Shown here: positions 4,826 to 18,158 of the stretch, in pieces
Numbering within the stretch: the stretch's first letter is position 1
Layout of the letters: every line of letters starts with the position of its first letter
DNA from: Sebaldella termitidis ATCC 33386
GTDB taxonomy: Bacteria > Fusobacteriota > Fusobacteriia > Fusobacteriales > Leptotrichiaceae
Length of the DNA stretch: 64,000 bases
NCBI RefSeq assembly: GCF_000024405.1
Contig: NC_013517.1
Location: 248,001 to 312,000 of the forward strand
Direction: 5' to 3'
Notes under the pieces: generated by a model
Told to the model about the DNA's origin: nothing
Seen by the model: the letters and a program-made list of their open reading frames with translations, nothing else
The model's database searches: none
Made by a program: the position numbers and the translations under genes

Positions 4826-5992
4826 TTAAATGTTTAAATTTTCACCAAGCCTGAAAACCGGAAGCAGGACGGAGATAACAATAAGTCCGATAAAAAAGGC
4901 TATAAAAATAATTGAAACAGGCTCAAGAATTTTTAGAAACCTTTTGGTTTTTTCTTTTATACGCATAAAATAAATATCTGTAATATGAGAAAAAACGAAG
5001 CCTAGATTGCCGGTTTCTTCACCAATAAGTATATAATTTTTATATTCATTGTCAAAAAACTGCATATTTTCGATAATTGTGCTTATGCTATGACCCTGTT
5101 CCAGTTTTTTTACAAGTATTTTTAACTCTTTTTCGAGAAGACTGCCTGCGGTCTGTGCACTAAGTTCGATTGATCTTATGATTTCCACGCCGCTGTTCAG
5201 GAGAATACTCATACTTTGAGAAAAATATAAAATTCTGAATTCCTGATACAGTTTTTTTACAGCCGGAAATTTTATAAGCAGCTTTTCAAAATTTTCTTTA
5301 TTTTTTTTACAGTATGTAATGGAAAAAAAGAATAAACCAATTACTGATATTGAGATTATGATAAAATATTTTCCGTATAAATTGCTGAGCTTTATCATAA
5401 TTTTGGTTAAAAGCGGTATTTCTTTATTTAAATCATTATATATTCCTGAAAATTTCGGCACGACGAATTTGAATAAAATACTGATAATTATAATAGAAGT
5501 GCCTAATACCAAAGCAGGATACATACTAAGATTTATAATTTCTTTTTTTAGCTCCTGTTCAAATTCATATTTATTTTTTAGATTTTCGAGAGGGAGCAGT
5601 ATATTACCGCTCTCTTCAGCTATTTCCATTGTATTAAGAAAAATTTTATCATCTGTAATAAAAGCAAAGCCTTCTCTGAGAGTTTTACCTGCTTTTAGTG
5701 CTGATACAGCATTGCTTATATTATCTTTCAAAGCTCCTGAAAAATTTTCCGCAAGAATAGACAGGGCATCTGCAATTCTTATATCAGCTTTTACGAGAAA
5801 ATAAAGAGAAGTTATAAAGGTCGTGAATTCTCCGGTTTTTACCCTGCTTTTTAATGACAGGATTTTTTTATGATGAAGAAGTGTATACTTTTGTATCTTT
5901 ATATAATCATAGAATTCTTTCTCATTTTTGAATTCTAAAACAGAGCTTTTTTTATTAAAGCCCTTATCCATATATTTAAATTTTATTTTCAA
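4826..5992 (-). CDS. pilC: type IV pilus / type II secretion inner-membrane platform protein (PilC/GspF family)
   Basis: Polytopic protein on which pilins are assembled. Two GspF domains are visible (about residues 50-175 and 255-375), each beginning with a helical cytoplasmic part (FITSLYFLVKADIRIADAL; FSQSMSILLNSGVEIIRSIE) and the conserved EESGN / GEETGN motif, followed by hydrophobic segments (about 165-190, 210-230 and 355-380). The 388-residue length fits the family. The start is taken as TTG with a GGGGGG-type ribosome site; an ATG seven codons in lacks one. It is the last gene after ispF, 62 bases away, and is physically separated from the pilus cluster of the same strand. No PilB-type ATPase accompanies it. 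Confidence 0.88.
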   Translation of the reverse strand: MKIKFKYMDKGFNKKSSVLEFKNEKEFYDYIKIQKYTLLHHKKILSLKSRVKTGEFTTFITSLYFLVKADIRIADALSILAENFSGALKDNISNAVSALKAGKTLREGFAFITDDKIFLNTMEIAEESGNILLPLENLKNKYEFEQELKKEIINLSMYPALVLGTSIIIISILFKFVVPKFSGIYNDLNKEIPLLTKIMIKLSNLYGKYFIIISISVIGLFFFSITYCKKNKENFEKLLIKFPAVKKLYQEFRILYFSQSMSILLNSGVEIIRSIELSAQTAGSLLEKELKILVKKLEQGHSISTIIENMQFFDNEYKNYILIGEETGNLGFVFSHITDIYFMRIKEKTKRFLKILEPVSIIFIAFFIGLIVISVLLPVFRLGENLNI

Positions 5993-11688: not shown

Positions 11689-12819
11689 TTATTTTTTATT
11701 AAAAATTTTCAGATCGATACATTCTGCCATAGCCTTTATTCCCTCATCATTAATATAAAAATATTCTTTTTTGTCAAAATCTTTTTTTAGTTTTTCCGGT
11801 TCTTCGGGATTGCATAAAAAACTGTCAAAGTCAGCAACAGAATCGAACTCTTCAGAGGTGCGGATCCAGAAATTGACAGCTGTACGGATACTCTCCATTT
11901 TGGCAGAATAATATTTACATCCATAAACAGGCGGAATTGTACATCCGATAATGCTGATCTGTCTCTCTTTTGCAATTGTGCTGCAAATTTTCAGGGCATT
12001 TATAATGTCATTTCCGTTTAAGGATGAGATTTCCTCGGTTTTGCATGAAGAAATAAGATCGTTGATTCCCGGAAATAACAGAAGAAATTTTATTCCGGTT
12101 TGATTAAGCACGTCTTTTTCAAATCTTGATAAACCAGAGGAGCCGTAAAGTCCTTTTAGCTGATCGGGACAGCTGTGGAGAAGCCTGTTTCCGTTAATTT
12201 CCTGACTTAAAACGGCAGTATTGTGAATATTATTTTCTTGGAAACGCTTAACAAGATGATGGTGCCAGCCGTTTGCAATACCAGAATCTCCGAATATAAC
12301 AAGGGAGGAATAACTGCCCTCATCGATTACCTCTATATTTGTGACAAACGGAATAAGATGGTTTCTGTATTCATTTTTATGCAGAATATCTGAATTCTTA
12401 TTTTTTAGTTCATCAAGAATATTTCCTTTTTCTGAAATATAATATGATAAAAATGAAAAATTGCCTGTACTTAGTTCTGTAAAATTTTCTATATAAAGAC
12501 CTACCCAGTAATTTTCATCTGCTGTAACAGAAAATTCCAGAGGGTCACTGTATATTTCTTCTTTTACAGGTATTATTACTTCATGACCGCCGTTAAAGAA
12601 GATATCAGAGTAAGCTGAATTTTCTTTGAAAATACAGGCCTCTTTTATTTTTAACGGAAGACTGCCGTAAAGATTGGAAAATTTTATTTTTATATTTCTT
12701 CCTTTTAGCGTAATATTTAATTTTATAAGAATTGTTTCATTTTTAAACTGTATATTTGTAAGGGTAAGATTAGTAGCAGATACGCTGAAAGCTCCTACCC
12801 ATTTAATTTTACTATTCAT
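11689..12819 (-). CDS. SGNH/GDSL-fold protein with altered catalytic Asp/His, terminal gene of pilus operon
   Basis: Residues 1-165 look like the beta-rich N-terminal part seen in two-domain GDSL esterases. From about 172 an SGNH hydrolase core follows: block I VIFGDSGIANG (Ser179), block II NGNRLL (Gly210, Asn211), block III PGINDL (Asn253). Block V in relatives reads G-D-H-L-H-P-N-D-A-G; here residues 351-360 are K-E-Y-F-Y-I-N-D-E-G, so the catalytic Asp is Glu and the catalytic His is Tyr355. No signal peptide is evident. The start follows TTAGGAGG, and the gene begins 22 bases after the secretin stop, so it is co-transcribed with the pilus genes. It may be a binding protein or an enzyme with a non-standard triad; its substrate is unknown. 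Confidence 0.78.
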   Translation of the reverse strand: MNSKIKWVGAFSVSATNLTLTNIQFKNETILIKLNITLKGRNIKIKFSNLYGSLPLKIKEACIFKENSAYSDIFFNGGHEVIIPVKEEIYSDPLEFSVTADENYWVGLYIENFTELSTGNFSFLSYYISEKGNILDELKNKNSDILHKNEYRNHLIPFVTNIEVIDEGSYSSLVIFGDSGIANGWHHHLVKRFQENNIHNTAVLSQEINGNRLLHSCPDQLKGLYGSSGLSRFEKDVLNQTGIKFLLLFPGINDLISSCKTEEISSLNGNDIINALKICSTIAKERQISIIGCTIPPVYGCKYYSAKMESIRTAVNFWIRTSEEFDSVADFDSFLCNPEEPEKLKKDFDKKEYFYINDEGIKAMAECIDLKIFNKK

Positions 12820-12841: not shown

Positions 12842-13948
12842 TTATTCTGTCTGTATTTCTCCTTCTATTTCAATATAAATATCTCGGATTTCTTTATTTT
12901 TTCTCTTATATCTGAATAAAGAACCCAGAATTGGTATTTTGCTTAATACAGGGACTCTTTTTTCAGAATCTTTCTGTACATTTTGTTTTAAACCGCCTAT
13001 AAAAACAGAAGTTCCGTTTTTGAAAGAAACTATTGAATTGATTTTATTTTTCTGTTTTGCACCCTGATCGGCATTAAAATTAGAGCTTAGCTTAAAATTA
13101 CTTATTTCGGAATCAATGTAAAGTATGATTTCCTGAGAATCGCCGAAACCTCTTATTTCAGGTTTTATCTTAAAAACAACACCGGCCTCTGCAAAAACAG
13201 GCTCTATATACTCTGTATCCTTAATAGTAGATTTTTTTTCGCCGACAATTACCTCCTCAGTGACTCTGAGTTCTCCCTCACTGCCTTCAAGAATGAGAAG
13301 GACAGGCATAGCTTCTATTTTTATATCTCCATTTTCTTTAAGAGCGTCTATATTGATACCTAAAAAATTTCCTCCTGTTTTCAATAAACCGGACAATGAA
13401 AGATTACCGTCTATAAACGAACTGAGGAAATCCGAAGCTTTATTATCATTGTTTTTTCCGGCAGAAAAATCAACGCCCAGTCTTTCAAAAAGATTGTCAC
13501 TTGTATCAATAATAGTAGCTTTTATTTGAATTTGCTTTTTAGGACGGTCAAATTTTTCTATAATATATTTTAGTTCATTGATCTCTTCCATAGTTCCTTT
13601 CAGAATAAGTTCTTTTCCAAGCCCGGTTATTTTAGAGGTGTTAATATCCTTGAGCTTCGGGATCAGCTCAGAGGTATCGATATTAACAAGTCTTATGCTT
13701 TCCCGGGTAACAGGCGGAGTTTTATTTTTCTCACTGTTATTTTGCAGAGAAGCAGGAGAAGAAATTTCACTTTTTATTTCTGCAGTATTTTGTACTTTTT
13801 CAGAAGCTTTTTTTATTTCTTCCTTAGGCTTAACAATAAAAATTCTCTTTGAAGCTTCATGATCTTCTTTATTTACGTAATTACTGATTTCTGTACTGTA
13901 TGCAGGCAGAAATATCAACAGAATAAGAAAAATATATTTTTTATTCAC
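12842..13948 (-). CDS. pilQ: secretin, outer-membrane pore of type IV pilus / type II secretion-like system
   Basis: A signal peptide (about 1-18, ILLIFLPAYS) opens a 368-residue protein, short for PilQ or GspD. A charged low-complexity stretch (about 25-80) leads to one N1-type periplasmic domain (about 85-140: LVNIDTSELIPKLKDIN...YIIEKFDRP). The secretin core has the hallmark end VPVLSKIPILGSLFRYKRKN, matching the VPxLxxIPxLGxLFR signature. Peptidoglycan-binding AMIN and N0 domains are missing, so the periplasmic part is minimal. It overlaps the PilO-like gene by four bases. By family knowledge it forms the multimeric outer-membrane channel for the pilus fibre. Confidence 0.9.
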   Translation of the reverse strand: MNKKYIFLILLIFLPAYSTEISNYVNKEDHEASKRIFIVKPKEEIKKASEKVQNTAEIKSEISSPASLQNNSEKNKTPPVTRESIRLVNIDTSELIPKLKDINTSKITGLGKELILKGTMEEINELKYIIEKFDRPKKQIQIKATIIDTSDNLFERLGVDFSAGKNNDNKASDFLSSFIDGNLSLSGLLKTGGNFLGINIDALKENGDIKIEAMPVLLILEGSEGELRVTEEVIVGEKKSTIKDTEYIEPVFAEAGVVFKIKPEIRGFGDSQEIILYIDSEISNFKLSSNFNADQGAKQKNKINSIVSFKNGTSVFIGGLKQNVQKDSEKRVPVLSKIPILGSLFRYKRKNKEIRDIYIEIEGEIQTE

Positions 13949-14490
13949 TTTTTCTCCTCCTTCATTAAATTTGAATTTTTTTCCAGATATCCCAGAGAAA
14001 TTTTAAAACTGTCTCTTGTAAGCTCTATATATGATTTAGTCATATCAATGTATACTTTGCTTTTATTGATAAAATATAGAAATTTTGTCATTCCGGCAAG
14101 ATCTCCTTCAAATGTAAAAAAAATATATTTTAGTGAATAGCTCTCTTTTTTCCAGATATACTCAGCCTTTCCTATTTCCCTTAAATCAAGTCCGCTTTCT
14201 TCGGAAAATAAATAGATGATTTTTTTAAACTCAGTTTCATTTTTCAGTGTACTGGAATTAAGATTTAGTGTTATATTATTAATTGTTTTCAGCTGTTCTT
14301 CCGACTCTGTTTTCTTTTGAGAATTTTCTTCATTAACATGTCTGAGTTTTTCTTTCAGTTCATTTTTTTCATTAAGCAGGATATTATAATTATTTTTTAG
14401 TTCTGTTCTTCTTTCATATTTTTGAAATAGAAATATTAATAAAACGACACTCAGGAAGAGCAGCGTGTATTTATTTCTGTTTAATTCCAT
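13945..14490 (-). CDS. PilO/GspM-like inner-membrane alignment protein
   Basis: Bitopic protein of 181 residues: short cytoplasmic start, one transmembrane helix (about 8-23, YTLLFLSVVLLIFLF), a coiled coil (about 28-75, rich in N, E, K and L) and a small alpha/beta periplasmic domain with a beta strand pattern (KYIFFTFEGDLAGMTKFLYFI) typical of PilO ferredoxin-like folds. Sequence similarity alone is weak; the call rests on topology and on its place between the PilM/N-like gene and the secretin, the usual order pilM-N-O-(P)-Q. No PilP lipoprotein gene is present. Confidence 0.7.
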   Translation of the reverse strand: MELNRNKYTLLFLSVVLLIFLFQKYERRTELKNNYNILLNEKNELKEKLRHVNEENSQKKTESEEQLKTINNITLNLNSSTLKNETEFKKIIYLFSEESGLDLREIGKAEYIWKKESYSLKYIFFTFEGDLAGMTKFLYFINKSKVYIDMTKSYIELTRDSFKISLGYLEKNSNLMKEEKK

Positions 14491-15632
14491 ATGATATCCC
14501 CGATTTTATACTGAAATGTAAGAAGCTTGCTGCGGCTTTTTATAAATATCAATTCGATATTCTGAGCATATCTCGCTAATTTTATTTCAAATTTTTCTAT
14601 ATTTTTAAATTTTAATGAATCACCTTCAATAGTCCAGAAATTATTCTCATAAATAATTTTTGAAAAACCTGTATCGGTATTTGATTCCTCAATAAGAAAT
14701 TTGAGAAATTTATAATGATTCTGATATTTCATATTTTGGATAATTTCTTTTAATTCATTTAGATCTTTGGAATAGTCCGGAATATTTTCATTCTTTGCTG
14801 CAAGAAAACTTTGCTGTATGGTTTCAACTTCATTTTTTATTTCATCATTTTTTTTCTCCAGTTCGTTTGTGGATAAAAATAAATTTAACAGGATGCATAT
14901 CAGAATGATCAGGAAATAAGGAAAAATATTTTTCATTTTTATATTTTTAAATATAGGAATACGGGTATTTAAAAAGTTTATATCGTTGGATAGTTCACAT
15001 CCTTTAAAAATAATTTCTATATTTTCAGGCTGATAGTCTAAAAAGATCATCGTCTCATCATCATTTACAAATTCGTAGGAATTTATGTTATCACTGTCAT
15101 TTATATTAAGATTAAGGCTTTTAAAGCCTTGAATGTTCCTGTTCCGTACAGAGAGAAAAGAACTGAGTTCATCCCCGAAGGTAAGGACAGAGACATCTTC
15201 ATTTTCATAGTATCTGTATATTCCAATAATATCCGCCTTACATTCTGTGATTATAAATCCGTATTTTTTTAACAAGGCAGCAAGATTGACAATAAAATCT
15301 CTTCTGATACAAAAAACTAGACTTTTTCTTAACGGATGATCAAGATAAAACTGTTTTGTAATAAAATTTTTGATACTATAATTTTCAATTTCATCTGATA
15401 AAAAAGATTTTAAAAGATTTTGCTCTTCCTTGCTATTGGAAGAAGGTGCTTCAAAAAAACTAATATAAAATCTTGAAAAATCAAGAATAAGTGAGACTTT
15501 TTCTTTTTTTATGCCATATTTGTTTTTTATGTCATTAATAACCTCAAGGATATTATCAAATGTATAAGCAGTGATTTCTTCATGGTATTTCAGAAAAAGT
15601 CTGTTTTCGCTTTTTAAATAAATTTCCAGCAT
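14481..15632 (-). CDS. PilM-PilN / GspL-like fused alignment-complex protein
   Basis: Residues 1-225 look like a divergent actin-like PilM/GspL cytoplasmic domain (KVSLILDFSRFYISFFEAP; VLTFGDELSSFLSVRN). A transmembrane helix at about 233-250 (IFPYFLIILICILLNLFL) is followed by a coiled coil and a small periplasmic domain resembling PilN (FSKIIYENNFWTIEGDS). In type IV pilus systems PilM and PilN are separate proteins, whereas type II secretion fuses the same elements as GspL, so this 383-residue protein has GspL-like architecture. Stop and start codons of its neighbours overlap, indicating tight coupling. Assignment is from layout and context more than motif identity. Confidence 0.68.
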   Translation of the reverse strand: MLEIYLKSENRLFLKYHEEITAYTFDNILEVINDIKNKYGIKKEKVSLILDFSRFYISFFEAPSSNSKEEQNLLKSFLSDEIENYSIKNFITKQFYLDHPLRKSLVFCIRRDFIVNLAALLKKYGFIITECKADIIGIYRYYENEDVSVLTFGDELSSFLSVRNRNIQGFKSLNLNINDSDNINSYEFVNDDETMIFLDYQPENIEIIFKGCELSNDINFLNTRIPIFKNIKMKNIFPYFLIILICILLNLFLSTNELEKKNDEIKNEVETIQQSFLAAKNENIPDYSKDLNELKEIIQNMKYQNHYKFLKFLIEESNTDTGFSKIIYENNFWTIEGDSLKFKNIEKFEIKLARYAQNIELIFIKSRSKLLTFQYKIGDIIWN

Positions 15633-16171
15633 TATTCCCCCTCAAAATAGAAACTAATGGTTTCTATATTTATTTCATCGTTATTTTTTCTAATAAATTT
15701 TATATTTTCTGCAGCAGAGATATTTTCATTTAGAATATTTTTTCCATATATTATTATTAAATCCGGATACAGCATATTTTCTTTTAATGGCAGATGATAA
15801 CTGTTGCCGTTTTGATCTTTTATATCTGTAATATTAAAACCGCCTGTGCTTTTTTCATTTTGCTTGAAGTATAAAAGTCTCTTTAGATTAGTTTTACCGG
15901 TGCTGTCTTCCGCAACTCCGGAATTATAATATTCATATTTATTATTCAGCGAGATTTTGTTTCCGGCAATCAAAATACCGCTTTTGTAAATAGAAGCCGA
16001 GAAAGCTTTTTCATTTTCTGTAAGCTTTATTTTTAAAGCATAAGAGTAAGCAGAATTAAGGGTCAAAATTTTATATCTGTTTTTGGTAAAAAAGATAAAT
16101 CCTGTAAGAAATACAGATAAAACAGATAAGATAATTAATACATACAGTAAGGAACTTCCTTTATTTTTCAT
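15632..16171 (-). CDS. minor pilin, PilX/GspK-like
   Basis: The N-terminus MKNKG|SSLLYVLIILSVLSV is a class III prepilin leader with a hydrophobic helix, but mature position 5 is Tyr instead of the usual Glu. Lack of Glu5 is typical of GspK/PilX-type tip pseudopilins. The remaining 150 residues are a soluble domain rich in beta strands with no recognisable motif. It overlaps the next minor pilin gene by four bases and starts one base from the PilM/N-like gene. Probably part of the initiating tip complex with the other two minor pilins. Confidence 0.72.
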   Translation of the reverse strand: MKNKGSSLLYVLIILSVLSVFLTGFIFFTKNRYKILTLNSAYSYALKIKLTENEKAFSASIYKSGILIAGNKISLNNKYEYYNSGVAEDSTGKTNLKRLLYFKQNEKSTGGFNITDIKDQNGNSYHLPLKENMLYPDLIIIYGKNILNENISAAENIKFIRKNNDEINIETISFYFEGE

Positions 16172-16650
16172 TTTAGATTTATCACCTGCTCTGTTGTATT
16201 TCCGTTTATCTCAAAAATTATCAGCAGGAGATCACTCTTAGTCCGAAATACTAATGAATCAAGCTTTGCAAGAGTATCATATTTTTTGAAGCTTTCCGGA
16301 GTTTGGGAACTGGAAATAAGCAGTTTCGGTTTATTGAATTTTATCAGGTAAAATTCTCCGTCGGCTTTATAAAGCAATGAATTGCCGGTATCGGAAACTC
16401 CATTTTCATTTATAATAAAAAAATTTGATTTTTTCCCTTTATATAAAAATTTTTCTTTATCTCTTTCTTTAATGTTTTTTTTTAATACATTAAAAAGGTA
16501 AAGTGTATTTTCACCGGCAGTTCTGACTTTAGTTTTGTAATTTTGAATAATGACTATTCTTTTCATAAAAGTAAACAGTAAAAGTAATATTATGGAAAAA
16601 ATAAATATATTGAGAATAAATTCCAGCAGCAGGCCTCCTTTATTTTTCAT
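16168..16650 (-). CDS. minor pilin, PilW/GspJ-like
   Basis: Class III prepilin: MKNKG|GLLLEFILNIFIFSI shows a Gly at the cleavage site and Glu at mature position 5, followed by a roughly 20-residue hydrophobic helix. The 160-residue size and long helix-then-beta layout (VRTAGENTLYLFNVLKKNIKE...) fit PilW/GspJ. Its start overlaps the end of the preceding minor pilin gene by 11 bases. The peptidase encoded three genes upstream in transcription order would process it. Confidence 0.75.
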   Translation of the reverse strand: MKNKGGLLLEFILNIFIFSIILLLLFTFMKRIVIIQNYKTKVRTAGENTLYLFNVLKKNIKERDKEKFLYKGKKSNFFIINENGVSDTGNSLLYKADGEFYLIKFNKPKLLISSSQTPESFKKYDTLAKLDSLVFRTKSDLLLIIFEINGNTTEQVINLK

Positions 16651-17071
16651 AATCCTCCAAATAGGGTATATAATATAATTCTTTAGTATCAGTGGTAATT
16701 TTAAAAATAAAAAGCTTTTGTAAATTTTTATTTAAGTAATAGTATTCTGTTTTTTGAATATCAATATTGATAAGAGTGTTCTCTTTTTCCTTTGTTTCAA
16801 AGCAGCTTAAGTGAAAGAAATTACAAAAATCCTTAAAGGAAGTAAAGCTTTTTTTGCCTGTCTTTGTTTCAAGATTTTGGTACCCTGTATTTTCCAGATA
16901 TTCCGGTATATTCTCCAAAAAAACAGACTCACGCTCCTTTTTTTCCAAAAGTATATTAGTCTTAAAAACCTTTATATACAAATGCGAAAAAGGAAGAAGG
17001 ACAGCTGTGATATATAAAAGTGCCAGAAGATTTTCAATAAGAAGGCTTCCTCTTTTGTTTTTGTATTTCAT
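16640..17071 (-). CDS. minor pilin, PilV/GspI-like
   Basis: Class III prepilin leader MKYKNKRG|SLLIENLLALLYITA with Glu at mature position 5 and a hydrophobic helix to about residue 30. The 143-residue protein has two cysteines (in NFFHLSCFE and none paired nearby), so a disulfide is unlikely. Order V-W-X in transcription matches gspI-J-K and pilV-W-X clusters. It overlaps the prepilin peptidase gene by four bases. Confidence 0.73.
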   Translation of the reverse strand: MKYKNKRGSLLIENLLALLYITAVLLPFSHLYIKVFKTNILLEKKERESVFLENIPEYLENTGYQNLETKTGKKSFTSFKDFCNFFHLSCFETKEKENTLINIDIQKTEYYYLNKNLQKLFIFKITTDTKELYYIPYLEDYEK

Positions 17072-17787
17072 AAGTACACTTCACTTATAAATACCGAAAA
17101 GCATATAAAAGGAGCAAAAGCCACATAGCATTTCAGAGTCCTTTTTCTAAAGAAAATGAGAAAAAATGAGAAAATCCCGGCACTGATATAAAGTATTTCA
17201 TAAAACCACAGCAGATTTTTTAATCCGGAATATGAAATAAAGCCGCCGGCAGCACATATTAATTTCACATCTCCGAATCCGATGATTTCTTTATTTATAA
17301 AATCAGAAGCAGAATAAAGTAAAAGTACGGGTAATCCGTAAGAAGCCGCACCAAGGAACCAGTTTTCCGGATTATTCCGTAAAACAGAGTAAAGAAACCC
17401 TGTGATCAGCAGTATAATGAAAAATCTGTCAGGAATAATATGTGTTTCAATATCAATAAATGAAGCTGCGAGTAAAATTGAGTAAACAAATGCCTTGTAA
17501 AAAAATATAATAGAGAAACCATGAGAAAAATATAATATCAGAAATAAAACAGGAGTGAGTATTTCCAGAATAAAATATGATCTTTTGATTTTTATCCCGC
17601 AGCGGTGACATTTTCCGTGCTGGAGCAGGAAAGAAAATACAGGTATGTTACGGTAAAAGGCAATTTTTACTGCGCAGCGGTCACATTTGGAGCCCGGGAA
17701 AATAATGCTTTCATTTCTTGGAATTCTGTAACAGATAACACCTGTAAAACTTCCGGTGATTAATCCCAGTATCAAGGCTGCAATCAT
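17068..17787 (-). CDS. pilD: prepilin peptidase / N-methyltransferase
   Basis: Membrane aspartyl protease that cleaves prepilin leaders and methylates the new N-terminus. The cytoplasmic methyltransferase-type zinc motif has two C-x2-C pairs (Cys35/38 and Cys60/63). The two catalytic aspartates are Asp112 (SFIDIETHIIPD) and Asp173 in the GFGDVK motif. About seven hydrophobic segments fill the 239 residues, as expected. The position directly after the main pilin and before the minor pilins shows dedication to this cluster. Confidence 0.95.
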   Translation of the reverse strand: MIAALILGLITGSFTGVICYRIPRNESIIFPGSKCDRCAVKIAFYRNIPVFSFLLQHGKCHRCGIKIKRSYFILEILTPVLFLILYFSHGFSIIFFYKAFVYSILLAASFIDIETHIIPDRFFIILLITGFLYSVLRNNPENWFLGAASYGLPVLLLYSASDFINKEIIGFGDVKLICAAGGFISYSGLKNLLWFYEILYISAGIFSFFLIFFRKRTLKCYVAFAPFICFSVFISEVYL

Positions 17788-18158
17788 TTTGCCACCAGGG
17801 TTTCATCCTTAAAAGATCTGCTGTCACTGTCTATTTTAGCGGATATTTCCCCGTCATCCAGAAAAAATTTTCCCTTGATATTTCCAAGTTCAAAACTGGT
17901 ATCTGTTTTCAGATTAATATTAAGTTTTTCAATATCTCCGTGTTCCTGAAAGACTTTCTGGATATCATCCGGAATACTGCCGTTATTTTCAATACTCCAT
18001 GAAAGCGAAGAATTATTCAGATCGGAGATAGCACCTAAGATTTTACTTTTATTGGCTTTGTCCAGGTATTTATTTACTTGAGGAATGGCAATAGTGGCAA
18101 TTATAGAGATAATAGCCAGAACAAGAATGACTTCGACAAGTGTGAATCCTTTTTTCAT
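17784..18158 (-). CDS. major pilin / pseudopilin (type IV pilin-like)
   Basis: MKKG|FTLVEVILVLAIISIIATIAIP is a textbook class III prepilin leader with Phe at mature position 1 and Glu at position 5. The mature protein is only about 120 residues, with a helix and a small C-terminal beta domain (FELGNIKGKFFLDDGEISAKI), closer in size to GspG or ComGC pseudopilins than to long PilA pilins. No cysteines occur. The ATG follows AAAGGGGGAAA. First gene of the cluster and overlapping pilD by four bases; expected to be the most abundant subunit. Confidence 0.9.
   Translation of the reverse strand: MKKGFTLVEVILVLAIISIIATIAIPQVNKYLDKANKSKILGAISDLNNSSLSWSIENNGSIPDDIQKVFQEHGDIEKLNINLKTDTSFELGNIKGKFFLDDGEISAKIDSDSRSFKDETLVAK

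What the first reader, a model, noticed from the sequence alone, without database searches (positions are those of the whole stretch)
12842..18158. Type IV pilus / type II secretion-like cluster with no assembly ATPase
Eight genes encode pilin, peptidase, three minor pilins, a fused GspL-like PilM/PilN, PilO-like and a minimal secretin, but no PilB/GspE, PilT or PilP. Mixed features (short ComGC/GspG-like pilin, GspL-like fusion, minor pilin lacking Glu5, secretin without AMIN/N0) place it between pili and secretion systems. Fusobacteria-type machines of this sort are poorly characterised.
Basis: partly seen in the sequence, partly recalled or inferred. Interest (0 to 1): 0.6.

Follow-up and report, generated by a model that had tools for sequence, protein, structure and literature searches.

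The report
Scattered DNA-uptake pilus with swapped motor
This gene cluster is most of a slimmed-down type IV pilus machine, probably used to pull in DNA; the parts that seemed to be missing, including its motor, sit elsewhere on the same chromosome.

Summary
The eight genes exist where reported. The "no ATPase" reading fails for the whole genome. The platform protein PilC lies in the same window (4826-5992) and one assembly ATPase lies 0.43 Mb away. The genome holds one secretin, one PilC, one PilB and one ComEC, and no PilT. Secretin and PilC trees and shared gene order mark a reduced type IVa pilus, not a type II secretion system. The fused PilM/PilN protein does have GspL architecture. A minor-pilin family links the pilus to DNA uptake: its gene is beside comEC in 29 of 33 Leptotrichiaceae genomes and within 700 bases of pilB in 38 of 61 Fusobacteriaceae genomes. 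According to a review, pilQ and comEC deletions abolish natural transformation in Fusobacterium nucleatum. The Leptotrichiaceae ATPase descends from a stand-alone PilB, not from the operon's PilB: a probable motor swap. In this genome dprA is split by an apparent ~79.5-kb prophage. Known kind of machine, unusual variant.

The parts
17784..18158 (-). pilA: major pilin, 124 aa, class III leader GFTLVE, no Cys
   Evidence: N_methyl 30.1 bits over cut-off; best NCBIfam hits PpdD, ComGC, GspG, all below their cut-offs; dN/dS 0.03
17068..17787 (-). pilD: prepilin peptidase with N-terminal methylase-type domain, 239 aa
   Evidence: A24_N_bact 98.6 bits, Peptidase_A24 51 bits
16640..17071 (-). pI: minor pilin-like, 143 aa, Glu5 present
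   Evidence: leader and position; homologues at the same place in Leptotrichiaceae
16168..16650 (-). pJ: minor pilin-like, 160 aa, Glu5 present
   Evidence: leader and position; weak TadF match below cut-off
15632..16171 (-). pK: minor pilin-like, 179 aa, Tyr instead of Glu5 (GspK/PilX position)
   Evidence: sequence and position
14481..15632 (-). pilMN: truncated actin-like PilM/GspL domain + TM + coiled coil + ferredoxin-like domain, 383 aa
   Evidence: AlphaFold2 model; matches to cyto-EpsL, PilM, and periplasmic EpsL/PulL; homologous to Fusobacterium PilMN, hhalign 96.6%
13945..14490 (-). pilO-like, 181 aa
   Evidence: position between pilMN and secretin, conserved across Leptotrichiaceae; no Pfam match
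12842..13948 (-). secretin (PilQ), 368 aa, N-terminal region lost relative to Fusobacterium
   Evidence: Secretin 101.9 bits; alignment A1; tree
   Evidence: T2SSF 131 bits, two stretches; tree

Best explanation
It is the core of the genome's only type IV filament machine: a reduced type IVa pilus whose likeliest job is DNA uptake. PilD matures PilA, pI, pJ, pK and a fifth pilin encoded beside comEC. The single distant PilB-type ATPase, acting on PilC and docked by the GspL-like PilMN/PilO pair, would build a pilus through the short secretin. With no PilT, retraction would be by reversal of the same motor or spontaneous (inferred, by analogy with Com pili). DNA would pass to a membrane-anchored ComEA-like protein and ComEC. 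In Leptotrichiaceae the operon's own PilB was lost and replaced by a stand-alone PilB paralogue from a sua5-linked locus. Shown here by computation: parts list, single copies, purifying selection, T4aP affinity of secretin and PilC, PilB origin, pilin-comEC linkage. Inferred: assembly, DNA-uptake function, retraction mode. In this strain dprA is split by an apparent prophage, so uptake may not end in recombination.
For: One secretin, one PilC, one PilB, one ComEC in the genome. Gene order conserved across Leptotrichiaceae and shared with Fusobacterium up to rfaE/ispF. Canonical PilM/PilN at the same slot in G042. Secretin in the T4P clade 100/100, apart from GspD, HofQ and T2SS-like fusobacterial loci. 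PilC with Fusobacterium operon PilC, 91/88. PilB with stand-alone PilB 98/97; grouping with Fusobacterium operon PilB rejected p=0.001, with all T4P-operon PilB p=0.006; x144-pilB adjacency in 29 of 33 Leptotrichiaceae genomes, and within 500 bases in 5 and 2.5 kb in 1 of the 6 genomes outside the family that I compared. One pilin family (A5) is beside comEC in 29 of 33 Leptotrichiaceae and within 700 bases of pilB in 38 of 61 Fusobacteriaceae. ComEA-like protein. pilQ and comEC needed for transformation in F. nucleatum (review passages).
Against: No experiment in this organism. dprA is interrupted here, and the four genomes of tool genus g11 lack a dprA match over cut-off, as do G065 and G090. 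The comEC-linked pilin lacks the FimT GRxR motif and its fold could not be modelled. G065 has the cluster but no PilB; it also lacks the neighbour gene x144, so a gap is possible. G083 and G084 keep PilB and PilC without a secretin. PDB profile ranking puts GspD above PilQ for this secretin, though a canonical fusobacterial PilQ also ranks GspD first. PilC support is moderate and some branches are long. The AU groups were named after the tree was seen.
Confidence: 0.7

Rival explanations
1. A type II secretion system-like machine that exports folded proteins with a short pseudopilus.
For: GspL-like PilMN fold in both halves; short pilin; no PilT; secretin profile scores GspD chains above PilQ chains.
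Against: Secretin groups 100/100 with T4P-operon secretins and away from E. coli GspD and T2SS-like loci of G063. Canonical PilQ of G042 also scores GspD first. No GspC in the block. A pilin of the set is in the comEC operon.
Confidence: 0.1
2. A surface pilus for adhesion or another task, with DNA uptake secondary or absent.
For: The pilus genes persist where comEC is disrupted or truncated: 11 of 12 genomes of tool genus g13 have stops within the comEC match (the 12th, G015, has no comEC match), but 11 of 12 keep a secretin.
Against: Pilin-comEC gene linkage; no PilT; reported loss of transformation in F. nucleatum pilQ and comEC deletions.
Confidence: 0.15
3. A decaying relic that no longer assembles.
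For: Operon broken up; PilT and operon PilB lost, PilP not seen; dprA interrupted.
Against: dN/dS 0.03-0.26 for all eight genes and pilC against G090; full-length ORFs; conserved order in the family.
Confidence: 0.05

Closest known systems
Type IV pilus of Fusobacterium linked to natural competence (Sanders et al. 2023, Anaerobe; seen only as cited in passages of PMC12940168 and PMC11486156)
   Same: Orthologous slot and parts: pilB, pilC, pilA, pilD, three minor pilins, PilMN, PilO, secretin, then rfaE and ispF
   Different: Here pilB and pilC are outside the block, pilB is a different paralogue, PilT is absent, the secretin lacks its N-terminal region, and the fifth pilin sits with comEC. 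I did not identify F. nucleatum itself among my loci; the named Fusobacterium is F. gastrosuis (L101)
Canonical T4aP operon (G042, locus L092: pilB-C-...-A-D-V-W-X-M-N-O-P-Q-rfaE-ispF)
   Same: Same slot, same order; secretin in the same clade
   Different: Separate PilM (57 bits) and PilN (24.7 bits), a PilP-position gene, 594-aa secretin
Type II secretion system (E. coli gspC-O, locus L103)
   Same: GspL-like architecture of PilMN
   Different: Secretin and PilC do not group with it; no GspC in the block
Acinetobacter baylyi two-motor pilus, PilB and TfpB (PMC8213720, abstract read)
   Same: A second, phylogenetically distinct extension motor exists beside PilB
   Different: There both motors are used; here the second type appears to have replaced the first
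Monoderm Com pilus (ComG; recalled)
   Same: One short ATPase, no PilT, short pilin
   Different: This one has a secretin and PilMN/PilO

Membership tests
Type IVa pilus | Assembly ATPase PilB in the genome | tested here: met
   One T2SSE match at 392 bits, motifs intact
Type IVa pilus | Platform PilC | tested here: met
   window 4826-5992, T2SSF 131 bits
Type IVa pilus | Secretin of the T4aP clade | tested here: met
   100/100 with T4P-operon secretins
Type IVa pilus | PilM, PilN, PilO alignment complex | tested here: met
   PilMN fused, fold match; PilO by position only (negative)
Type IVa pilus | PilP | tested here: inconclusive
   No ORF between pilO and secretin; genome not searched with a PilP profile
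Type IVa pilus | Retraction ATPase PilT (usual, not universal) | tested here: not met
   TIGR01420 over cut-off in 39 of 98 genomes, in none of 33 Leptotrichiaceae; own genome's only match is PilB
Type II secretion system | GspL/GspM assembly pair | tested here: inconclusive
   PilMN is GspL-like in fold, but PilM scores equally well; PilO and GspM not separated
Type II secretion system | GspD-clade secretin | tested here: not met
Type II secretion system | GspC | tested here: inconclusive
   None in the block; genome not searched with a GspC profile
Natural transformation machinery | ComEC | tested here: met
   One, 454 aa, 155.8 bits
Natural transformation machinery | ComEA-like membrane-anchored HhH protein | tested here: met
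   181 aa, HHH_3 30.2 bits over cut-off; no match over the TIGR00426 cut-off in this genome
Natural transformation machinery | Intact DprA | tested here: not met
   Split into two ORFs 79.5 kb apart
Natural transformation machinery | DNA uptake observed | not testable with these tools
   needs a bench assay

The most novel reading that the evidence does not exclude
In Leptotrichiaceae a stand-alone PilB paralogue replaced the pilus operon's own assembly motor, PilT was lost, and one borrowed ATPase now drives a DNA-uptake pilus, while one pilin family travels between the pil operon and the comEC operon and acts as the DNA-contacting tip subunit.
Probability: 0.45. Interest if true: 0.65.

Novelty: new variant of a known kind. 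Interest (0 to 1): 0.48.

Why it matters
A recent review says Fusobacterium lacks PilM, PilO and PilP (and elsewhere in the text PilN) and that its pilus may be non-functional (passages of PMC12940168). These data indicate that in the Fusobacterium loci seen here the PilM/PilN and PilO positions are filled by a fused, diverged GspL-like protein and a PilO-like protein that ordinary profiles miss. They also offer a natural case of motor exchange in a type IV pilus, and a family-wide gene linkage that points to a candidate DNA-contacting pilin to test.

Tried and rejected
Dead duplicate of another pilus or T2SS: rejected, single copies and purifying selection. Plasmid copies of PilMN: no match in plasmids. 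Profile search of PilMN against PDB sequences: nothing. hhalign of PilMN against single PilM and PilN sequences: weak, 30% and 6%. comEC-linked pilin against E. coli GspH, GspJ and GspG: only the N-terminal part aligned, and against PDB sequences likewise; no FimT/GspH assignment is claimed. The AlphaFold model of its Fusobacterium homologue has mean pLDDT 42 and was not searched. TIGR00426 for ComEA also picks up ~720-790-aa frames in many genomes, so PF12836 was used. Promoter and terminator scan: near chance. Literature searches for Leptotrichia pili, a fusobacterial motor ATPase and Sebaldella pili listed no report of the swap; they cover open-licence PMC papers only and I read titles and abstract starts of those lists. 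A prophage-competence paper (PMC12637031) did not describe insertion into dprA in the passages shown.

Counts and exclusions: the class searches covered 98 genomes. Trees left out duplicate or near-identical loci and, for PilC and secretin, ORFs under 250 aa. In one search one duplicate PilB and one PilT fragment were dropped.

Full report
What is there. The window lies at C1:248001-312000 of a 4,486,650-base genome. The eight reported genes run on the minus strand from 18158 to 12842 with short overlaps. Pfam gives a secretin, a two-domain prepilin peptidase and an N_methyl pilin over cut-off. PilMN, PilO, pI, pJ and pK have no curated match over cut-off. pK has Tyr at the position of Glu5; the other pilins keep Glu.

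PilC/GspF is at window 4826-5992, on the same strand, beyond a GDSL gene, rfaE, an ABC transporter, a ROK kinase, an MFS gene and ispF. The assembly ATPase is at C1:692576-693634, 381 aa, between a sua5-x144 pair and a HAD gene, with Walker A, Walker B, His box and two CxxC motifs. Its Pfam list shows no MshEN domain, whereas the sua5-linked PilB of G041 has one. PilT is absent: the only TIGR01420 match in this genome is PilB itself, and none of 33 Leptotrichiaceae genomes has a match over cut-off, against 39 of 98 genomes in the class.

One machine only. The genome has one secretin, one PilC (two stretches of one protein), one T2SSE ATPase over cut-off and one ComEC. With the N_methyl profile, only pilA and a gene touching comEC match at E below 0.02.

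Descent. In Leptotrichiaceae loci L050-L053 and in the Sebaldella-type loci L061-L063 the order is pilA-pilD-pI-pJ-pK-pilMN-pilO-secretin-rfaE-...-pilC, as far as each stretch reaches. In Fusobacterium loci such as L101 and L102 the order is pilin-small gene-pilB-pilC-pilA-pilD-three pilins-pilMN-pilO-secretin-rfaE-ispF. In G042 the slot before rfaE and ispF holds pilB-pilC-(ABC genes)-pilA-pilD-pilins-pilM-pilN-pilO-pilP-pilQ, with PilM_2 at 57 bits and PilN at 24.7 bits, both over cut-off; its pilO and pilP are named by position. The secretin tree of 31 rows puts the own secretin in a 23-row T4P clade (100/100), away from E. coli GspD and HofQ and from T2SS-like loci of G063. PilC of Leptotrichiaceae joins the Fusobacterium PilCs at 91/88. 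The alignment A1 shows that the short secretin is a loss or gain difference at the N terminus: L059 and L060 of Fusobacterium carry a region that all eleven Leptotrichiaceae rows lack; canonical PilQ of G042 is long too (594 aa), so loss is likelier.

The GspL-like protein. The AlphaFold2 model of PilMN is modest (mean pLDDT 62.9), but both halves match: residues 1-220 to cyto-EpsL and PilM (Z about 11), residues 298-380 to periplasmic EpsL, PulL and XcpY (Z 10-11, rmsd 1.5-2.4). PilM and GspL score equally, so the fold does not choose between them. Sequence profiles confirm homology to the Fusobacterium fusion (96.6%, E 6.5e-10). GspL is known to correspond to PilM plus PilN (established knowledge), so architecture alone does not make this a T2SS.

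Motor swap. In the ATPase tree of 37 rows, Leptotrichiaceae PilB (three rows) groups at 98/97 with PilBs of G041, G063 and G064 that are not in pil operons, while Fusobacterium operon PilBs group with canonical T4P-operon PilBs at 96/98. Forcing Leptotrichiaceae PilB with the Fusobacterium operon PilBs costs 32 log units (p 0.001); with all T4P-operon PilBs, 18.7 (p 0.006); these groups were named after the tree was seen. Gene order agrees: a 144-aa gene, x144, lies within 500 bases of pilB in 29 of 33 Leptotrichiaceae genomes. Of six genomes outside the family that I compared, five (G040, G041, G045, G047, G064) have it within 500 bases and G063 within 2.5 kb. The four exceptions are G065 (neither gene found), G083, G084 and the fragmentary G090. 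A two-motor ancestor has a precedent in A. baylyi (abstract of PMC8213720).

Link to DNA uptake. A pilin gene abuts comEC in this genome. Its family, A5, has a conserved T..GN motif. Its best match lies beside comEC in 29 of 33 Leptotrichiaceae genomes, and in G063 and G045 outside the family; it lies within 700 bases of the PilB match in 38 of 61 Fusobacteriaceae genomes, and within 3 kb in 40. The four Leptotrichiaceae without a strong match include G083 and G084, which also lack a secretin, and G067 and G088, in which no ComEC was found. A membrane-anchored HhH protein of ComEA type is present. A review reports that pilQ and comEC deletions abolish natural transformation in F. nucleatum ATCC 23726 (passages of PMC12940168); another states that F. 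nucleatum is competent through its type IV pili (passages of PMC11486156). The original paper was not available.

Caveat in this strain. dprA is in two pieces 79.5 kb apart. The first ORF holds the motif ...YEKGG near its end and is followed by a serine-recombinase integrase on the other strand; the second ORF holds GGALITAE near its start. Integrase, RecT-like, RecE-like and anti-repressor matches and an endolysin match within the insert mark it as a likely prophage; six of twelve proteins sampled with PHROGs had a match. A same-genus genome, G089, has dprA whole. So DNA may be taken up without productive recombination unless the element leaves.

Verdict. A reduced type IVa pilus, complete enough to work but scattered, most likely for DNA uptake; a new variant of a known kind. 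The steps of assembly, retraction without PilT and DNA contact are inferred.

Noticed in passing
G000 C1:1,340,303-1,341,007 and 1,420,550-1,420,948 (L126, L127), outside the window: dprA is split by a ~79.5-kb insert with a serine integrase at its left end and phage-type recombination, anti-repressor and endolysin genes: a likely prophage in a competence gene, comparable with comYC prophages of pneumococcus.
   Followed up: partly
genomes of tool genus g13 (G004-G015): comEC matches contain stop codons in 11 of 12 g13 genomes (no match in G015), while 11 of 12 keep a secretin: DNA-channel decay with the pilus kept.
   Followed up: no
window 17068-17787; L050-L053, L055-L057: PilD keeps the N-terminal domain (239-242 aa) in the Sebaldella-type loci; in the other Leptotrichiaceae and Fusobacterium loci seen it is a 136-166-aa short form.
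   Followed up: no
L092:3838-5622, L060:6212-7903: Two fusobacterial secretins show a carboxypeptidase-regulatory-like stretch ahead of Secretin_N, just below Pfam's cut-off.
   Followed up: no
L106, L108, L112: A further stand-alone PilB with no PilC beside it, next to a ~145-aa gene, a ~175-aa gene and a ~720-aa gene, in G042, G063 and G045.
   Followed up: no
window 11689-12819: A GDSL-esterase-like gene sits between the secretin and rfaE in the Sebaldella-type loci but not in the Leptotrichia-type loci L050-L053.
   Followed up: no
G083, G084, G065: G083 and G084 keep PilB and PilC but have no secretin match; G065 keeps the cluster but has neither PilB nor x144.
   Followed up: no
L085:4048-7597 (G026): In a Fusobacteriaceae genome PilT and a comEA-like gene lie two genes apart.
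   Followed up: no
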